This document shows positions 1,852-10,709 of a stretch of 11,738 bases of DNA, one piece after another. A program made the position numbers and the translations under genes. The notes under the pieces are model-generated. The model had not been told where the DNA came from. It did no database searches and saw only the letters and a program-made list of their open reading frames with translations. Origin of the DNA: Spirochaetes bacterium RBG_16_67_19 (GTDB taxonomy: Bacteria > Spirochaetota > Spirochaetia > SZUA-6 > DRHE01); contig MIBK01000237.1 in the NCBI GenBank assembly GCA_001829505.1, positions 3,740 to 15,477 of the forward strand. The letters run 5' to 3'. Positions within the stretch are counted from its first letter, which is position 1. Each line of letters begins with the position of its first letter.

Positions 1852-2739
1852 CTACAGTTGGGTTAAGAGGCGGGCGGCCTCCCGGCCAAGCTCGGAGGAG
1901 GAGTCCAGGCTCACCGCCTTCTGCAGCGCCTCGCGCGCCCCCTGGCTGCGTCCCAGCCCCTGGTAGGAGTAGGAAGAGAGGATCAGCAGCGCCTGGGCGA
2001 AGCTCCCCTCCGGGTTCAGGACGAGCTGGCCTTCGAACAGGGCCAGGGCGTCGGCGAAGGCCAGGCTCTCCAGCAGGAGCTGGCCCTTCAATAAAACGAG
2101 GTCGGTGTATAACGGCTCCTGAGGCTCGAGCTGGGCGCGCTCGAGAGTGCGCAGGGCCAGCGAGGTCCGCTTCTGCCCGCTATAGGCGGAGGCGATATAA
2201 TAGTAGAAGACCCCCTCTTCGCCGGGGTAGGCCGCCTTCAGCGCGTCCTGCAACACCTTCAGCGCCTCGTCCAGGCGCCCCGCTTCCAGCAAGGAGCGGC
2301 CTTCGGAGAGCGCCTCCTCCGAACCGGAGGCCTCCACCCATTCCACCGTGGCCGGTGCCCCGGCCGCGGCCCCGCGCGCGCCCATGGCCGCGGTGCCGTC
2401 GCCCTTGGCCCCTCCGGCGACCGTGCCCTTGACCTTGGCGCTGACCACCTTGCCCAGCTGCCAGGAGGCCACCTTTTTGGAGGCAGCCACCAGGTCGGCG
2501 GCCAGGTAGACGCCCGGCTGGCTTACCGCAAAGCGGGTGGACCCCTGAGCCAGCTCCACAAAGGCGTCCTCTGCGAGGCGTATCCGGGCGCCAACCGGCA
2601 GGCGATCGCCCGGAGCCAGTTCCTTCCAGCTACCGCCGGAGGCCAGCTCTACCAGGCCTTCGGTGTACTCGACGCGCAAGTCCTGCGCCGCCGCGCCCAG
2701 CGCGGCCAGCAGGAAAAGCCCGAGGATCCATTTCTTCAT
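1852..2739 (-). CDS. Secreted FecR-domain / TPR protein (intact copy)
   Basis: A 295-residue exported protein. Residues 1-19 form a signal peptide (M-K-K-W-I-L-G-L-F-L-L-A-A-L-G-A-A-A-Q). Residues about 22-80 resemble a FecR beta domain (an E-G-x-V-E-L start, P-G-D-R-L-P-V-G-A-R-I-R-L, then A-x-V-E-L-A-Q-G). An Ala/Gly-rich linker covers about 108-130. From about 145 to the end there are TPR-like helical repeats. FecR-TPR proteins are thought to sit in the periplasm or at the surface as binding scaffolds; no partner is visible here. A longer frame to 2916 is open, but it overlaps the divergent gene and lacks a signal peptide. The chosen ATG is followed by a clean signal sequence and fits the promoter. 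Its 5' part, to about codon 126, lies in the 651-bp duplication. It ends six bases from the tRNA, facing it. Confidence 0.87.
   Translation of the reverse strand: MKKWILGLFLLAALGAAAQDLRVEYTEGLVELASGGSWKELAPGDRLPVGARIRLAEDAFVELAQGSTRFAVSQPGVYLAADLVAASKKVASWQLGKVVSAKVKGTVAGGAKGDGTAAMGARGAAAGAPATVEWVEASGSEEALSEGRSLLEAGRLDEALKVLQDALKAAYPGEEGVFYYYIASAYSGQKRTSLALRTLERAQLEPQEPLYTDLVLLKGQLLLESLAFADALALFEGQLVLNPEGSFAQALLILSSYSYQGLGRSQGAREALQKAVSLDSSSELGREAARLLTQL
2348..2359 (+). repeat. 12-bp direct repeat at the duplication boundaries (first of three)
   Basis: GTGGCCGGTGCC occurs at 2348-2359, 2999-3010 and 3650-3661, spaced exactly 651 bases apart. The first and last lie in unrelated genes (FecR-TPR linker codons and cytochrome b561 codons) and were probably the original short homology. 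The middle one is at the junction. Beyond the 12 bases the outer copies match at a further 6 of 10 positions, and the switch occurs in that part. Confidence 0.9.
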
Positions 2740-2746
2740 ACCTTGA

Positions 2747-2775
2747 AGGGTATCGCCTCCGGAACGGAAAATCAA
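2747..2775 (-). promoter_or_regulatory. Leaderless-type promoter of the intact FecR-TPR gene
   Basis: On the minus strand, TTGATT (2770-2775), a 17-base spacer and TACCCT (2747-2752) precede the ATG by seven bases. Transcription would start at 2739-2740, on or next to the first base of the start codon. An identical copy is at 3398-3426 in unit B. The GGAGG in the spacer would not be transcribed, so it is not a ribosome binding site. Confidence 0.5.
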
Positions 2776-2786
2776 CGCGGGCGCCC

Positions 2787-2815
2787 TTGCCAACCCGGTG
2801 GACATGCAGCAGAAT
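2787..2815 (+). promoter_or_regulatory. Promoter copy driving the truncated cytochrome b561 fragment
   Basis: TTGCCA (2787-2792), a 17-base spacer and CAGAAT (2810-2815) stand six bases before an ATG at 2822. This is the exact duplicate of the promoter at 3438-3466. If active, it would transcribe rightward through the chimeric fragment and antisense to the FecR fragment of unit B. Confidence 0.5.
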
Positions 2816-2821
2816 GAAAGC

Positions 2822-3160
2822 ATGCCGCTTTTCCTGCCGCCGGGACCGTACGGGGCGCTGTTGCCTCTGCACGCCGGGCTGATGAGCCTGGGCTTCCTGT
2901 TCTCCCTGGCCGGCACCTTCTTCCCCCGCTACCTGAAGCGCCGCAAATGGTGGCTGCAGGCCCATCTGGTGATCTCCGGGCTGGGCGCGGGGCTGGGAGT
3001 GGCCGGTGCCGGCGCCGCGGCCCCGCGCGCGCCCATGGCCGCGGTGCCGTCGCCCTTGGCCCCTCCGGCGACCGTGCCCTTGACCTTGGCGCTGACCACC
3101 TTGCCCAGCTGCCAGGAGGCCACCTTTTTGGAGGCAGCCACCAGGTCGGCGGCCAGGTAG
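2822..3160 (+). pseudogene. Cytochrome b561 fragment fused to antisense FecR sequence
   Basis: The first 64 or so codons are identical to the intact gene at 3473, covering helix 1 and most of helix 2 with His17 and His48. After the junction at 3014-3015 the frame continues for 48 codons through the complement of the duplicated FecR-TPR gene and stops at 3160. The tail is Ala/Pro/Thr/Leu-rich and has no relation to the family. Helices 3 and 4 and two of the four haem ligands are missing, so a working cytochrome is not expected. It retains its own promoter copy, so a short membrane peptide could be made. Confidence 0.85.
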
Positions 3161-3390
3161 ACGCCCGGCTGGCTTACCGCAAAGCGGGTGGACCCCTGAG
3201 CCAGCTCCACAAAGGCGTCCTCTGCGAGGCGTATCCGGGCGCCAACCGGCAGGCGATCGCCCGGAGCCAGTTCCTTCCAGCTACCGCCGGAGGCCAGCTC
3301 TACCAGGCCTTCGGTGTACTCGACGCGCAAGTCCTGCGCCGCCGCGCCCAGCGCGGCCAGCAGGAAAAGCCCGAGGATCCATTTCTTCAT
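2929..3390 (-). pseudogene. FecR-TPR fragment fused to antisense cytochrome b561 sequence
   Basis: This is the second copy of the FecR-TPR 5' end, starting at the ATG 3388-3390. About 125 codons (signal peptide, FecR domain and part of the linker) are identical to the intact gene. After the junction the frame runs 28 codons through the complement of the cytochrome gene (a Pro/Ala/Ser stretch, then basic residues) and stops. All TPR repeats are lost. The signal peptide and the FecR domain itself are complete, so a secreted FecR-only product of 153 residues is possible if the locus is real. Confidence 0.85.
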
Positions 3391-3397
3391 ACCTTGA

Positions 3398-3426
3398 AGG
3401 GTATCGCCTCCGGAACGGAAAATCAA
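3398..3426 (-). promoter_or_regulatory. Promoter copy driving the FecR fragment
   Basis: Exact duplicate of the promoter at 2747-2775: TTGATT at 3421-3426 and TACCCT at 3398-3403 on the minus strand, seven bases before the ATG at 3390. Transcripts from here could read through unit A and on toward the intact FecR-TPR gene. Confidence 0.48.
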
Positions 3427-3437
3427 CGCGGGCGCCC

Positions 3438-3466
3438 TTGCCAACCCGGTGGACATGCAGCAGAAT
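3438..3466 (+). promoter_or_regulatory. Leaderless-type promoter of the intact cytochrome b561 gene
   Basis: TTGCCA (3438-3443), a 17-base spacer and CAGAAT (3461-3466) are followed by six bases and the ATG at 3473, so transcription would begin at the start codon. Upstream in-frame starts (GTG 3449, ATG 3455) fall inside the spacer and would not be transcribed, which decides the start. Confidence 0.52.
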
Positions 3467-3472
3467 GAAAGC

Positions 3473-3907
3473 ATGCCGCTTTTCCTGCCGCCGGGACCGT
3501 ACGGGGCGCTGTTGCCTCTGCACGCCGGGCTGATGAGCCTGGGCTTCCTGTTCTCCCTGGCCGGCACCTTCTTCCCCCGCTACCTGAAGCGCCGCAAATG
3601 GTGGCTGCAGGCCCATCTGGTGATCTCCGGGCTGGGCGCGGGGCTGGGAGTGGCCGGTGCCGGCGCGGCGGTGCAGATGGTGGCCGCCTCGGGCCGCGGG
3701 CACCTGCGCGTCCCGCACGCCATCTCCGGCACCATCACCATGGCCCTGGGCCTGGCGGCGCCCATCCTGGGCAGGGTGATGTTCGAGGGTCACGGCGGGC
3801 TCAGGCCCTACCGCTCCGTGCATCGCTGGATCGGCCGGGCGGCCCTCCTGGCCATGGCCGGCACGATCCTGCTGGGGCTGCTGCGGGCCGGCTGGCTGCG
3901 CTTCTGA
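3473..3907 (+). CDS. Four-helix cytochrome b561-type membrane protein (intact copy)
   Basis: A 144-residue membrane protein matching the core of the cytochrome b561/ferric-reductase transmembrane domain. Four helices are visible at about 11-33, 46-68, 80-101 and 115-138. Each carries one His in the family's position: His17 (L-P-L-H-A-G-L-M), His48 (W-W-L-Q-A-H), His82 (V-P-H-A-I-S-G) and His117 (Y-R-S-V-H-R-W-I-G). The basic loop F-P-R-Y-L-K-R-R-K between helices 1 and 2 is typical. Two b-haems and transmembrane electron transfer are expected; donor and acceptor are unknown. There is no fused DOMON or reductase domain. The start was chosen at 3473 from the promoter geometry; a GTG at 3449 would add eight residues. 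The gene faces ftsK, with one base between the stop codons. Confidence 0.8.
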   Translation: MPLFLPPGPYGALLPLHAGLMSLGFLFSLAGTFFPRYLKRRKWWLQAHLVISGLGAGLGVAGAGAAVQMVAASGRGHLRVPHAISGTITMALGLAAPILGRVMFEGHGGLRPYRSVHRWIGRAALLAMAGTILLGLLRAGWLRF

Positions 3908-6191: not shown

Positions 6192-8408
6192 CTAAGGGTA
6201 GAACAGGCGCACGGTATCCCGCGGGGCCAGCCCGTAATACAGCTGCCCATAGCGCACCGCCGAAATCAGGATCTTGCGCACGTAGCGGCGGGTCTCAGCG
6301 AAGGGCACGGCTTCCACTAGCAGGTCGCTGGGCAGGCCGGCGGCGCCGCGCTCCCAGGAGCGCAGGCGGCCGGAGCCGGCGTTGTAGGCCAACAGCGCCC
6401 TGGAAAGGTCCTTGGACCTGGCCGCCAGGCGGGCCAGGTGCCGGGCCCCGATGCGCAGGTTCTGACCCGGGTCGCGCAGGTCCGGTTCCTCGATCTTCAG
6501 CAGGCGGGCCACCTCCAGGGCGGTTTCCGGGAGCAACTGGGTCAGGCCCACCGCCCCCGCGCTGGAGACGATGGCCGGATCGAAGTGGCTCTCCTCGCGG
6601 ACCAGGGCGAAAAAGACCGCCGGGGGCAGGCTCTCCTCACGGCAGACCTCCTCCAGCGCTTCCGCGAAGCCGCGGGGGTAGTACAGGCGCAGCACCTCCT
6701 CGGTGACCGGCCCGCCTTCCAGATAGCGGGCCAGCAGGCGCAGGCTCTGCAGGTACTGGCCCCGGCCGTCCAGCTCCCGCACCGCGCGCAGCAGCAGACC
6801 GGGCTCGGCCCGTGGGGACAGCAGTCGCCGATAGCCCTCCTGGTACAGGCCATGCGCGATGAATCCCAGGAGGAAGGCTTCGGGCACGGTAGCCGCCGCG
6901 GCCCCGGTGGTGCCGCTGGTCCCGGAGGCCGCCGCGTTCCCTGCCGGGGCCTCCTCAGACGCCGAAGCCGGCGGTGCCTGCGGCGGTGATTCCTCGGCAG
7001 TCTCCTCCTCCTCCCTCCCGTCAACCGGCTGGAACGCCGCGCTCTCGGAAGCCGGCAGCCGCGCGGCGGACAGGCGCCCGTGATAGCCTCCCGGGTCCAG
7101 GCGCGCGGCCTCGCGGAAGCTTTCCAGCGGGTCGCCCTCCAGGTCGCCCAGCTCCCGCAGCCGACCTTGCAGGTAGGCCAGCCGTGCTCGCGGCGCCAGA
7201 GCGCGCTGCTGCACAGCCCCAGGCGCCTCCACGCGCTGCATCGCCGTGCGCAGCCTGGCCAGCAGGGCCCATTGCCGCCGCGCCACCATGGCGGAGATCT
7301 CCTGTTCCAGGATGTCGGCGAAATAGTCGGGATCCGCCCAGGCCTGCCCCTCCATCTCCGCCAGAAAGTCCTCCGCGGAGCGCTCCCGGGCCAGGTCCAG
7401 AAGCAGCCAGGAGGCGCGGTCGCGTTGGGCGGAAACCGCGCTGTCCCGCGCCACGCGTCGGAAGGCGGCTTCCGCGGCCGCCCGCTCGCCCGCCCGGCGG
7501 GCCAGTCGGCCGGCCCACTCGGCACCGTTGGAGTCCTCCACCAGAGGGCCCAGGAGCCGGGCGCCCCGCGCGGGCTGCCTTGCCCGCAGGAAGGCCCCCG
7601 CCGCCTCCGGCAGCAGCGGGGCGCGCAGGGCTGGGGACAGCTCGGGGAACGAGCTCTCCAAGGCATCAAGAGCCTCCGCGGCGCGCCCCTCGGCCAGGGC
7701 GGCCTTGGCCCCGAAAAACGCGGCTTCCGCCGGGGAGAAGCGTCCCAGGCGTTCCTCCAGCTGCAGGAAGGACCAGGCGCGCGAGTGAAGCCCGGAGGCC
7801 TGGCGCTGGAAGAACAGCACCCGGAACAGCTCCGGCCAGTCCGGGGCATTCAACCGGCAGGAGGCCGCGGCCCGGAACAGCAGCAGCTCTTCGTCCCCCG
7901 ACCCGGCCAGCCTGTCCAGCCAGGGCAGCAGCTCGGCATCCTTGCGCTGCCAGTACAGGGCCTCGGCCAGCGCCCGCTCGCCTCCGCGGCGCAGCTCCGG
8001 TGAGCGCAGGCCCGGCAGGAAGCGGCGGGCCTGGCTTTCCGCCTCGGCCCATTCCCTTCGCGCCGCGTGCCCCGCCAGCAGGGCCAGGGCCGCCTCCTCC
8101 TTCCACCGCCCCCGCCCCTTTTCCCATTGCAGCGCGAGCAGAGCCCGGGCCTGTCCGGAGTCCCCCGACGCTTCAGCCCAGAAGGACAGGTAGTACGGGG
8201 AGCCCGGTCCGAGGCGGAAGGCCTGGGCCAGCGCCTCGCCCGAAGCCTCGCGCAGGAAGGAAGCGTCCCCGCGGGCGAGGCGCTCCAGGACCTGGGCGAT
8301 GGGCAGGCCCCAGAGGTCTTCCGCCCGGCACTGGGTCAGGGAGAGGACGGAAAGAAGCAGGAAAGGCAGAAGCCTACTTTTTCGGAATGAACAGTCGATG
8401 TCCCGCAA
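6192..8408 (-). CDS. Slt70-type lytic murein transglycosylase
   Basis: A 738-residue exported enzyme that cleaves glycan strands of peptidoglycan to 1,6-anhydro ends. A hydrophobic export signal at about 13-25 ends in L-T-Q-C27, a loose lipobox, so a lipoprotein is possible. Residues about 30-450 are Ala/Leu/Arg-rich helical repeats like the Slt70 superhelix. A low-complexity Glu/Pro/Ala/Gly insert covers about 458-510. The catalytic domain has R-E-E-S with Glu606 as the expected acid/base, G-L-T-Q at 621-624, A-Y-N-A-G from 674 and E-T-R-R-Y-V at 705-710. The only usual start is TTG at 8406-8408, 35 bases inside the upstream LysM gene, and its ribosome binding site is poor; a rarer start further in is possible. 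The overlap suggests translational coupling to the LysM gene. Confidence 0.93.
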   Translation of the reverse strand: MRDIDCSFRKSRLLPFLLLSVLSLTQCRAEDLWGLPIAQVLERLARGDASFLREASGEALAQAFRLGPGSPYYLSFWAEASGDSGQARALLALQWEKGRGRWKEEAALALLAGHAARREWAEAESQARRFLPGLRSPELRRGGERALAEALYWQRKDAELLPWLDRLAGSGDEELLLFRAAASCRLNAPDWPELFRVLFFQRQASGLHSRAWSFLQLEERLGRFSPAEAAFFGAKAALAEGRAAEALDALESSFPELSPALRAPLLPEAAGAFLRARQPARGARLLGPLVEDSNGAEWAGRLARRAGERAAAEAAFRRVARDSAVSAQRDRASWLLLDLARERSAEDFLAEMEGQAWADPDYFADILEQEISAMVARRQWALLARLRTAMQRVEAPGAVQQRALAPRARLAYLQGRLRELGDLEGDPLESFREAARLDPGGYHGRLSAARLPASESAAFQPVDGREEEETAEESPPQAPPASASEEAPAGNAAASGTSGTTGAAAATVPEAFLLGFIAHGLYQEGYRRLLSPRAEPGLLLRAVRELDGRGQYLQSLRLLARYLEGGPVTEEVLRLYYPRGFAEALEEVCREESLPPAVFFALVREESHFDPAIVSSAGAVGLTQLLPETALEVARLLKIEEPDLRDPGQNLRIGARHLARLAARSKDLSRALLAYNAGSGRLRSWERGAAGLPSDLLVEAVPFAETRRYVRKILISAVRYGQLYYGLAPRDTVRLFYP

Positions 8409-9273
8409 TGATCAGGTCCGGGTTGGGGATCTTGTTGGCCTTGGCCAGCCTGGGATACAGCCAGGGGTTGCGATAATAGGTGCCGGCCAGGTCCCAGAGG
8501 GTGTCGCCCCAGACGATCCGGTACCAGATTCCTTCGGCTGTGGAGGGCTGCGCGGCCGTCTGGCCCGCCGGGGCCACCTGGGCCGGGGAAGCCGCGGGTT
8601 GCGCCGCAACCGGGGCGGCCGCGGGCTTCTCGGCGGGCTTGGGCGGCACCGGTTCCGGCCTCGTGACCTCACCCCCGCCGCCGAACAGGCGCGGGATGCG
8701 CTCCCCGTCCAGGAGGCGGTAGATCAGGTAGGCGGCCCCGGCCAGGACCAGCAGTCCCAGCAGGACGAAACCGATCACGGCCAGCACGCGCGGCCGGCGG
8801 GGCTCCAGGGGCGCCTTGCGCCGGTCCTCCGTCCCGACCGGATAGGACTCGCCGGCCAGGCCTTTCCGGCCGAAGGGCTCCTCAACCGGCGCGGGGCGGA
8901 CCTGGGTTTCCCCTTCCAGATCCAGGTCCTCCAGGGGCGAGGTATCCCCGGTTGCAGGCAGACTCACCGACAGGCTCTGCTTCTCGCCGCTCATTGGATC
9001 CGAAGCGAAGGCTTCCAGGTTCCCGCTCGAGTCCAGGCCCAGCTGCAGCTCGATCTCCGGCTCCCGCTTGGGGGCGGGCTGGATGTTCTCGATCATGAGG
9101 CTGCCGATGAAGGCCTCGGCCCCCTCCAGGGAGCCCCGGTACAGATCGATCTGCACGGAGTCCTGGTTGTCCCTCGAGGTGGTCACCACCAGCTTCTTGC
9201 GGCCGGTGAAGTCCTCTTCGAGCACCGAATAGAAGGAACCGTCGGCCAGCTTGATCCCGATCTCGCTGCCCAT
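8374..9273 (-). CDS. Hsp70 substrate-domain-like / transmembrane / LysM protein
   Basis: A 299-residue inner-membrane protein with three parts. Residues about 2-105 read like the beta-sandwich substrate-binding domain of DnaK: T-T-S-R-D-N-Q-x-S-V-x-I-x-L-Y-x-G, then I-G-S-L-x-I-E-N-I-Q-P-A-P-K-x-x-P-E-I-E-L and D-S-S-G-N-L-E-A-x-A-x-D. There is no ATPase domain. An acidic linker leads to R-R-P-R and one helix at about 163-186, so the N-terminus should be cytoplasmic. A Pro/Ala/Lys-rich periplasmic spacer precedes a C-terminal LysM domain (about 249-297, W-G-D-T-L-W-D-L-A and N-P-D-L-I-I-A-G-H-R-L-F-I-P). ATG 9273 was chosen because transcription should begin there; TTG 9279 would add two residues. 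The function is unknown; context points to the cell envelope. Confidence 0.85.
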   Translation of the reverse strand: MGSEIGIKLADGSFYSVLEEDFTGRKKLVVTTSRDNQDSVQIDLYRGSLEGAEAFIGSLMIENIQPAPKREPEIELQLGLDSSGNLEAFASDPMSGEKQSLSVSLPATGDTSPLEDLDLEGETQVRPAPVEEPFGRKGLAGESYPVGTEDRRKAPLEPRRPRVLAVIGFVLLGLLVLAGAAYLIYRLLDGERIPRLFGGGGEVTRPEPVPPKPAEKPAAAPVAAQPAASPAQVAPAGQTAAQPSTAEGIWYRIVWGDTLWDLAGTYYRNPWLYPRLAKANKIPNPDLIIAGHRLFIPKK

Positions 9274-9336: not shown

Positions 9337-9366
9337 TTGACATTATCGGCACTTTCGCAAAACAAT
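9337..9366 (+). promoter_or_regulatory. Possible leaderless-type promoter of the TPR/Mrr-like gene
   Basis: TTGACA (9337-9342), an 18-base spacer and AACAAT (9361-9366) place the start of transcription at about 9373-9374, the first base of the ATG. It is back to back with the LysM promoter; the two -35 boxes are 28 bases apart. The -35 is perfect and the -10 matches four of six positions. Confidence 0.5.
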
Positions 9367-9373
9367 CAGGGAA

Positions 9374-10696
9374 ATGTCGGCTTGGCTGTACCTCCTGGCC
9401 GCCGGCGCCGTCCTCGGCACCGCCGCTTTCCTGTGGCTGCGCAGGGACGGGGGCGGGAGCGGTCGCCGCAGCCGCCTGGCGGAAGTGCGCGAAGCCAACC
9501 GGCGGCTGGTGCAGAACCCCCGCGACCCGGAGGCGCTGGCCGTTTTGGCCTCCGCGGCCTTCGAGGAGCAGGATTTCCCCCGCGCCTTCCAGCACTACCA
9601 GGTCCTGCTGCCCCTGGCCAGCGCCGGCGCACCGAAAGACTCCTTCCAGGTCACCCTGCGCTACGCCCAGGCCGCCCGCAACAGCGGCAAGATGGAGGAA
9701 GCCTACCAGGGCTTCCTGCTGGCCCTCGACCTGGACAAGGAGAGCTTCGAGGTCAGCTACAACCTGGGCGTGCTGGAATACGGGCGGAAGAACTACACCC
9801 GGGCCGTCGGCTTCCTGCGCCAGGCAGCCGCCGCGCAGCCGGACCACGCCCAGACCCTGAAATACCTGGGGCACGGCCTGTTCCAGCTCAAGCAGCACAA
9901 GGAGGCGGCCGCGGCGCTTTCCCGGAGCCTGGACCTGGAGCCGGAGGACACCGGCGCCCAGTTCGCGCTGGCCCGCTCCTACTACGGCCTGAGCTCCAAC
10001 GAGCCGGCCCTGGCCATCTTCTCCCGCCTGCGCACCGACCCGCAGTACGGCGCCCAGTCCTCGCTGTTCGCGGGCACCATCCACATGAACACCAAGCAGG
10101 CCGCCCGGGCCCTGGAGGACTTCGCCATCGGGCTGCGCCACCCGGGAACGCCGGCCAACGTGACCCTGGAGCTCCAGTACCGGAAGGCCGCGGTGCACGC
10201 CCGGGAAGGCGACATTCCCGCCGCCCTGGCCCTGTGGAAGGAGATCCTGGCCGTCCAGGCGGACTACCGCGACGTGCAGGAGTTGAGCGCCCGCTACCAG
10301 GAGGTGCACTCCAGCCGGCACTTGCAGGATTACCTGCTGGCCTCCAGCGCCGAGTTCCTCAGCCTGTGCCGCAAGGTGGCCGTGAAGTACTACCCGGGGG
10401 GCGCCGCCAAGCTGCTGTCCATCGGGCTGCAGCGCGCCGAGTACGCCGACCTGCTGGCCCAGGTGCGCACCCCCCAATGGGAGGAGCTGGTCCTGTTCCG
10501 CTTCCTGCGCACGAGCGGCTCCGTGGGCGAGCTGATGCTGCGGGACTTCTACGCCCGGCTGAAGGAGGTGCGCGCCGGCCGCGGGGTCTGCCTCACCGCG
10601 GGCGGCTTCTCGGAGCAGGCCGCGGCCTTCGTGGAGGCCCGGATGATCGACCTGGTGGAAAAAGAGGGCCTGGTCAAGCTGTTCCGCCGCATCTAG
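9374..10696 (+). CDS. Membrane-anchored TPR protein with degenerate Mrr-like C-terminal domain
   Basis: A 440-residue protein. One N-terminal helix (about 3-22) followed by R-R and then basic residues anchors it, with the bulk probably cytoplasmic. Residues about 50-310 are tandem TPR units (for example 123-156, 157-190 and 192-222). The last 110 or so residues resemble the catalytic fold of Mrr-type restriction endonucleases: S-G-S-V-G-E-L-M-L-R-D-F-Y-A-R-L, then G-V-C-L-T-A-G-G-F-S-E-Q-A-A-A-F and I-D-L-V-E-K-E-G-L-V-K-L-F. The strand that should carry Q-x-K instead reads R376-F-L378, so nuclease activity is unlikely. A role as a protein or nucleic-acid binding scaffold is inference. The ATG has no well-spaced ribosome binding site, which fits a leaderless message. 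It diverges from the LysM gene and converges on rsmG. Confidence 0.85.
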   Translation: MSAWLYLLAAGAVLGTAAFLWLRRDGGGSGRRSRLAEVREANRRLVQNPRDPEALAVLASAAFEEQDFPRAFQHYQVLLPLASAGAPKDSFQVTLRYAQAARNSGKMEEAYQGFLLALDLDKESFEVSYNLGVLEYGRKNYTRAVGFLRQAAAAQPDHAQTLKYLGHGLFQLKQHKEAAAALSRSLDLEPEDTGAQFALARSYYGLSSNEPALAIFSRLRTDPQYGAQSSLFAGTIHMNTKQAARALEDFAIGLRHPGTPANVTLELQYRKAAVHAREGDIPAALALWKEILAVQADYRDVQELSARYQEVHSSRHLQDYLLASSAEFLSLCRKVAVKYYPGGAAKLLSIGLQRAEYADLLAQVRTPQWEELVLFRFLRTSGSVGELMLRDFYARLKEVRAGRGVCLTAGGFSEQAAAFVEARMIDLVEKEGLVKLFRRI

Positions 10697-10709
10697 GCAT
10701 GGATGCCGA

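What the first reader, a model, noticed from the sequence alone, without database searches (positions are those of the whole stretch)
2363..3664. Perfect 651-bp tandem duplication spanning a divergent promoter and two gene 5' ends
2363-3013 and 3014-3664 are identical over the full length by reading. The unit covers the 5' parts of the FecR-TPR and cytochrome b561 genes and everything between them. Because both genes face outward, the duplication leaves one intact copy of each (FecR-TPR from unit A, cytochrome from unit B), so it costs the cell nothing and could persist. No divergence at all means it is either very recent, kept identical by recombination, or an assembly artefact.
Basis: seen in the sequence. 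Interest (0 to 1): 0.72.

Follow-up and report, generated by a model that had tools for sequence, protein, structure and literature searches.

The report
False tandem duplication from genome assembly
The perfect 651-base tandem repeat is really in the deposited sequence, but it most likely arose when assembly software joined sequence ends wrongly, not in the bacterium, because other joins of the same shape in the same draft genome cut into genes for conserved proteins.

Summary
The repeat is there as described: offset 651, exact over 2363-3015. It is most likely an assembly artefact. The window is a gap-free stretch of a 245-contig draft genome and is bounded by N runs on both sides. In 66 stretches (887 kb) of that genome I found four more tandem duplications, in genes resembling NuoF/HydB, Lon, an ABC ATPase and an aldo/keto reductase; four more stretches (41 kb) had none. 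In 71 stretches (1.01 Mb) of relatives none had a unit of 80 bp or more. In the four cases where both breakpoints are visible, ours included, the junction has one geometry: a 10-12 bp exact match between the two ends, then right-hand sequence, then a switch to left-hand sequence at base 6 (the 5-base overshoot is resolved in three, compatible in ours). In-cell slippage or recombination should switch inside the matching tract; a fixed overshoot looks like software. No reads were available, so depth and junction support are untested, and no relative's DNA with both genes side by side was seen.

The parts
2363..3013 (.). repeat unit A (651 bp)
   Evidence: identical to 3014-3664
3014..3664 (.). 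repeat unit B (651 bp)
   Evidence: identical to 2363-3013
2348..2359 (+). 12-bp tract GTGGCCGGTGCC at the left breakpoint (in the intact TPR gene)
2999..3010 (+). same 12-bp tract at the inferred false junction
3650..3661 (+). same 12-bp tract at the right breakpoint (in the intact cytochrome b561 gene)
3011..3016 (+). switch zone: right-type bases 3011-3013, bases 3014-3015 shared by both, first left-type base 3016
   Evidence: TPR families, no FecR match; 31 database proteins, of which P0022 is the window's own and the other full-length ones are 58-92% identical (where only the 7999 best candidates were scored)
3449..3907 (+). intact cytochrome b561-like protein, 152 aa; its start lies in unit B
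   Evidence: PF03188 E=4.6e-6
2798..3160 (+). chimeric ORF: cytochrome N-terminal part running into antisense TPR gene, 120 aa; no Pfam match
2929..3390 (-). chimeric ORF: TPR protein N-terminal part running into antisense cytochrome, 153 aa

Best explanation
The tandem repeat is a local assembly error. Shown: the assembly is gap-rich, and several joins in it have the same geometry. Inferred: when the scaffolder or gap closer joined sequence ends, it took a chance 10-12 bp match between the end of an already placed stretch and the start of the same stretch for a true overlap, kept the first sequence to its end (5 bases past the match), and then wrote the stretch out a second time. The real locus would have one unit: TPR gene, a single divergent intergenic region, cytochrome b561.
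For: 1) Window = G000:C237:3740-15477, with N runs at 3663-3739 and 15478-15512. The 66 own-genome stretches (887 kb) had 245 N runs of 120 distinct lengths. 2) Besides ours, 4 tandem duplications (offsets 84, 228, 324, 396) lie in those 66 stretches. Relatives: 0 with a unit >=80 bp in 71 stretches, 1.01 Mb; p=0.025 for 5 v 0, p=0.051 leaving out the case given to me (which counts the 41 kb without a case). 3) They sit inside genes of conserved proteins: 108 aa repeated within the Nuo51 FMN-binding domain of a NuoF/HydB-like protein, both copies aligning to the same residues 277-380 of the best solved relative 7t2r_B; 132 aa including the AAA domain of Lon; 76 aa in an ABC ATPase; 28 aa in an aldo/keto reductase-like protein (that name is my reading, no family scan). 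4) The 4 scorable junctions each follow a 10-12 bp exact match. In random pairs such a match near the break occurred in 42 of 375,038, and in 86 of 375,165 with in-frame offsets. In all 4 the first left-type base is +6; in 3 the right-type run reaches +5. 5) Of 6 family relatives, 3 (G001, G004, G006) have the cytochrome gene, once each, beside FtsK and without a duplication. 6) Precedent: passages of PMC7111523.
Against: No reads, depth or assembly graph were available, and the assembler is unknown. The excess over relatives is statistically modest. G001, G004 and G006 lack the TPR gene at this locus, so no relative's DNA with both genes side by side in single-unit form was seen. In the Lon case the two copies differ at 2 of 396 bases, which plain re-use of one stretch would not give without strain mixing. 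In ours the switch is resolved only to between +3 and +6. For L089 the script reports a lone right-type base at +22, which I read as a variant. L120 (contig start) could not be scored. Ours, unlike the others, leaves its genes intact. Absence of the chimeric proteins from the database is no evidence, since the window's own chimeric ORFs are absent too.
Confidence: 0.93

Rival explanations
1. A real, very recent tandem duplication formed in the cell by replication slippage or template switching between two short direct repeats (GTGGCCGGTGCC), harmless because one intact copy of each divergent gene remains.
For: 12-bp direct repeat at both breakpoints; intact genes kept; zero divergence fits a recent event.
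Against: The switch is not inside the matching tract but after 3 mismatching bases. The same geometry recurs in three unrelated duplications of the same assembly, which repeat parts of conserved proteins. The assembly is gap-rich.
Confidence: 0.05
2. Chimeric molecules made in the laboratory (PCR or whole-genome amplification template switching) that were then assembled.
For: Short homologies at the four scorable junctions. Two proteins that look chimeric and contain sequence of these two genes occur in other records: P0053 and P0054.
Against: Extending a 3' end that carries several mismatched bases, at a constant distance, is not expected of a polymerase. Chimeric molecules are random and rare, so assemblers tend to drop them (both general knowledge, not tested).
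Confidence: 0.02

Closest known systems
Local assembly errors / duplicate sequence at scaffold joins in metagenome assemblies (PMC7111523; passages seen)
   Same: Duplicate sequence at joins in scaffolded assemblies; incorrect protein-coding genes result.
   Different: The passages describe duplicates flanking inserted Ns, and wrong repeat numbers. Here the ends were merged without Ns on a short imperfect overlap, with a 5-base overshoot.
In vivo tandem duplication at short direct repeats (general knowledge; only a search listing seen)
   Same: Tandem head-to-tail copy with short homology at the junction.
   Different: The junction switches outside the homologous tract, at a distance shared by unrelated loci.

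Membership tests
assembly (scaffold-join) artefact | same kind of event elsewhere in the same assembly | tested here: met
   4 further tandem duplications in 66 stretches, 887 kb; none in 4 further stretches, 41 kb
assembly (scaffold-join) artefact | rarer in related genomes | tested here: inconclusive
   0 with unit >=80 bp in 71 stretches, 1.01 Mb, of relatives; p 0.025, or 0.051 without the given case
assembly (scaffold-join) artefact | fixed geometry not expected of biology | tested here: met
   first left-type base at +6 in 4 of 4 scorable cases of 5; overshoot of 5 resolved in 3
assembly (scaffold-join) artefact | breaks conserved genes | tested here: inconclusive
   met for the NuoF/HydB-like, Lon and ABC ATPase cases; the window's own case leaves its genes intact
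assembly (scaffold-join) artefact | no read support for the junction, single-copy depth | not testable with these tools
   no reads available
in vivo short-repeat tandem duplication | direct repeat at both breakpoints | tested here: met
   12 bp
in vivo short-repeat tandem duplication | switch lies within the shared tract | tested here: not met
   3 right-type bases after the tract, then 2 shared bases, then left-type
in vivo short-repeat tandem duplication | both units present in single molecules | not testable with these tools
   no reads available

The most novel reading that the evidence does not exclude
A lineage with an unusual in-cell process that creates many perfect tandem duplications by priming on a 10-12 bp match with a constant 5-base overhang of mismatched sequence, so that the genome really carries them, perhaps as population polymorphisms.
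Probability: 0.02. Interest if true: 0.75.

Novelty: not a real feature. Interest (0 to 1): 0.08.

Why it matters
It warns that this draft genome, and perhaps others made with the same pipeline, contains false in-frame duplications inside genes for conserved proteins that pass as long open reading frames. The geometry (10-12 bp match, 5-base overshoot, near-perfect copy) may serve as a screen for such joins in gap-rich draft assemblies. As biology it is ordinary.

Tried and rejected
Offsets that are multiples of 3 in 5 of 5 cases looked meaningful, but exact runs of 10 bp or more are about 4-5 times commoner at in-frame offsets in this genome (493 v 128 and 93, every fifth offset from 80 to 700), so this carries little weight. 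Searches for related DNA in genome contigs and viral contigs gave no relative. Searches of the protein database with both chimeric ORFs (511 candidates, 1762 candidates) found no protein carrying either junction, but the window's own chimeric ORFs were not returned either, so this decides nothing. The N-terminal extensions of P0023 and P0029 show a conserved intergenic region in near relatives, but would look the same with or without a duplication. Shared sequence flanking the N runs was looked for in 46 own stretches (182 runs, 1500 bases each side): the longest exact match was 33 bp. The first version of the junction statistic mis-scored L089, because its recorded match starts past one differing base (one search gave 2); redid it in register. 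Paper searches were seen as listings only; of PMC7111523 only the passages were seen. No search here was aimed well enough to say whether this geometry has been described in print. The survey looked only at direct repeats with a matched length of 60 or more and offsets up to 5000, and stretches were cut at 20 kb, so shorter units and the rest of the genome were not examined.

Full report
At offset 651 the window matches itself exactly over 2363-3015 (653 bases), so 2363-3013 and 3014-3664 are identical. The two outer boundaries look native: a strict pattern across them was found in 16 of 31 TPR-protein homologues (the window's own P0022 among them) and 15 of 21 cytochrome homologues; the others differ there by substitutions or small gaps, and P0051 starts after the breakpoint.

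The window is a gap-free piece of a gapped draft. It is G000:C237:3740-15477, from a 3.8-Mb, 245-contig assembly given as 83.67% complete and 3.9% contaminated, and N runs lie immediately on both sides. In 66 stretches (887 kb) of this genome there were 245 N runs with 120 distinct lengths; I take these for scaffold gaps, though stretches withheld by the operators also read N. Among the relatives sampled, G006 had nine runs of exactly 100, G001 one run of 2,934 that equals the length of its contig C4, and the others none.

The duplication is not alone. The same 66 stretches hold four more tandem duplications: L053 (unit 324, perfect), L089 (offset 228, 211 bp perfect), L114 (unit 396, 394 of 396) and L120 (offset 84, perfect, at a contig start). 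Four more stretches (41 kb) had none. In 71 stretches (1.01 Mb) of family, order and class relatives the only hit with adjoining copies was a 54-bp unit in L032; three other short direct repeats (62, 67 and 84 bp, copies apart) were listed. The contrast gives p=0.025, or 0.051 without the case I was handed: suggestive, not strong by itself.

Their content is telling. L053 repeats 108 residues inside the Nuo51 FMN-binding domain of a NuoF/HydB-type protein; the best solved match, 7t2r_B, aligns its residues 277-380 to both copies. L114 repeats 132 residues that include the AAA domain of Lon, and L089 repeats 76 residues of an ABC ATPase. Several such events in conserved proteins of one genome are hard to accept as biology.

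The junctions share one geometry. Comparing left end (L), junction (J) and right end (R) in register gives an exact tract of 12, 10, 12 and 10 bp common to all three in L029 (our case), L053, L089 and L114. After it J follows R, and the first base that is L-type is the sixth in all four. In L053 and L114 the last R-type base is the fifth. In L089 the R-type run also ends at the fifth, apart from one lone later base (+22) that I read as a strain variant; the script printed that base as the last. In ours the last R-type base is the third, and the next two are shared. L120 could not be scored. Random pairs have a tract of 10 bp or more near the break in 42 of 375,038 tries, or 86 of 375,165 with in-frame offsets, so the tract matters in forming the joins. 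An in-cell event primed or recombined on that tract should switch within it; a constant 5-base overshoot is what an overlap-joining rule could leave behind. That is a lead about which software, not a test.

Relatives: of six in the family, G001, G004 and G006 (one other genus) have the cytochrome gene, once each, next to FtsK and without a duplication; no TPR-gene match lies in those stretches. G002, G003 and G005 have no cytochrome match. So these loci show the neighbourhood without a repeat, but are not single-unit versions of the gene pair. The pair itself seems to be shared with close uncultured relatives, judging by matching contig lengths for the two proteins (36754, 6958, 4801, 4071) and conserved N-terminal extensions; their DNA was not seen.

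Precedent in print: the passages of PMC7111523 seen describe local assembly errors in metagenome assemblies, scaffolding that leaves duplicate sequence despite overlap, and wrong repeat numbers.

What remains open: no reads or assembly graph were available, the software is unknown, and the two differing bases in the Lon copies need strain mixing or another cause.

Noticed in passing
L053 (G000:C6) 7960-8607: Perfect 324-bp in-frame tandem duplication inside a NuoF/HydB-like gene; same junction geometry.
   Followed up: yes
L114 (G000:C27) 9348-10139: 396-bp in-frame tandem duplication in a Lon protease gene; the copies differ at 2 bases.
   Followed up: yes
L089 (G000:C245) 10010-10448 and after the N run 10583-10707: 228-bp-offset duplication in an ABC ATPase gene; after the gap a diverged copy of sequence from before it follows, perhaps a second strain.
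   Followed up: partly
L120 (G000:C33) 1-170: Perfect 84-bp tandem duplication at a contig start in an aldo/keto reductase-like gene (my reading of the translation); geometry could not be scored.
   Followed up: partly
P0053 and P0054 (database proteins, other records): P0053 equals the first 81 residues of the TPR protein and then runs into an unrelated tail; P0054 ends in antisense cytochrome sequence. Possible chimeric contigs.
   Followed up: partly
window 9374-10696: TPR protein with a C-terminal match to the Mrr restriction-endonuclease domain (PF04471, E=1.9e-6).
   Followed up: no
G001:C4 (L154): One run of 2,934 Ns in the G001 stretches equals the length of this contig, so it appears to read N throughout.
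   Followed up: no
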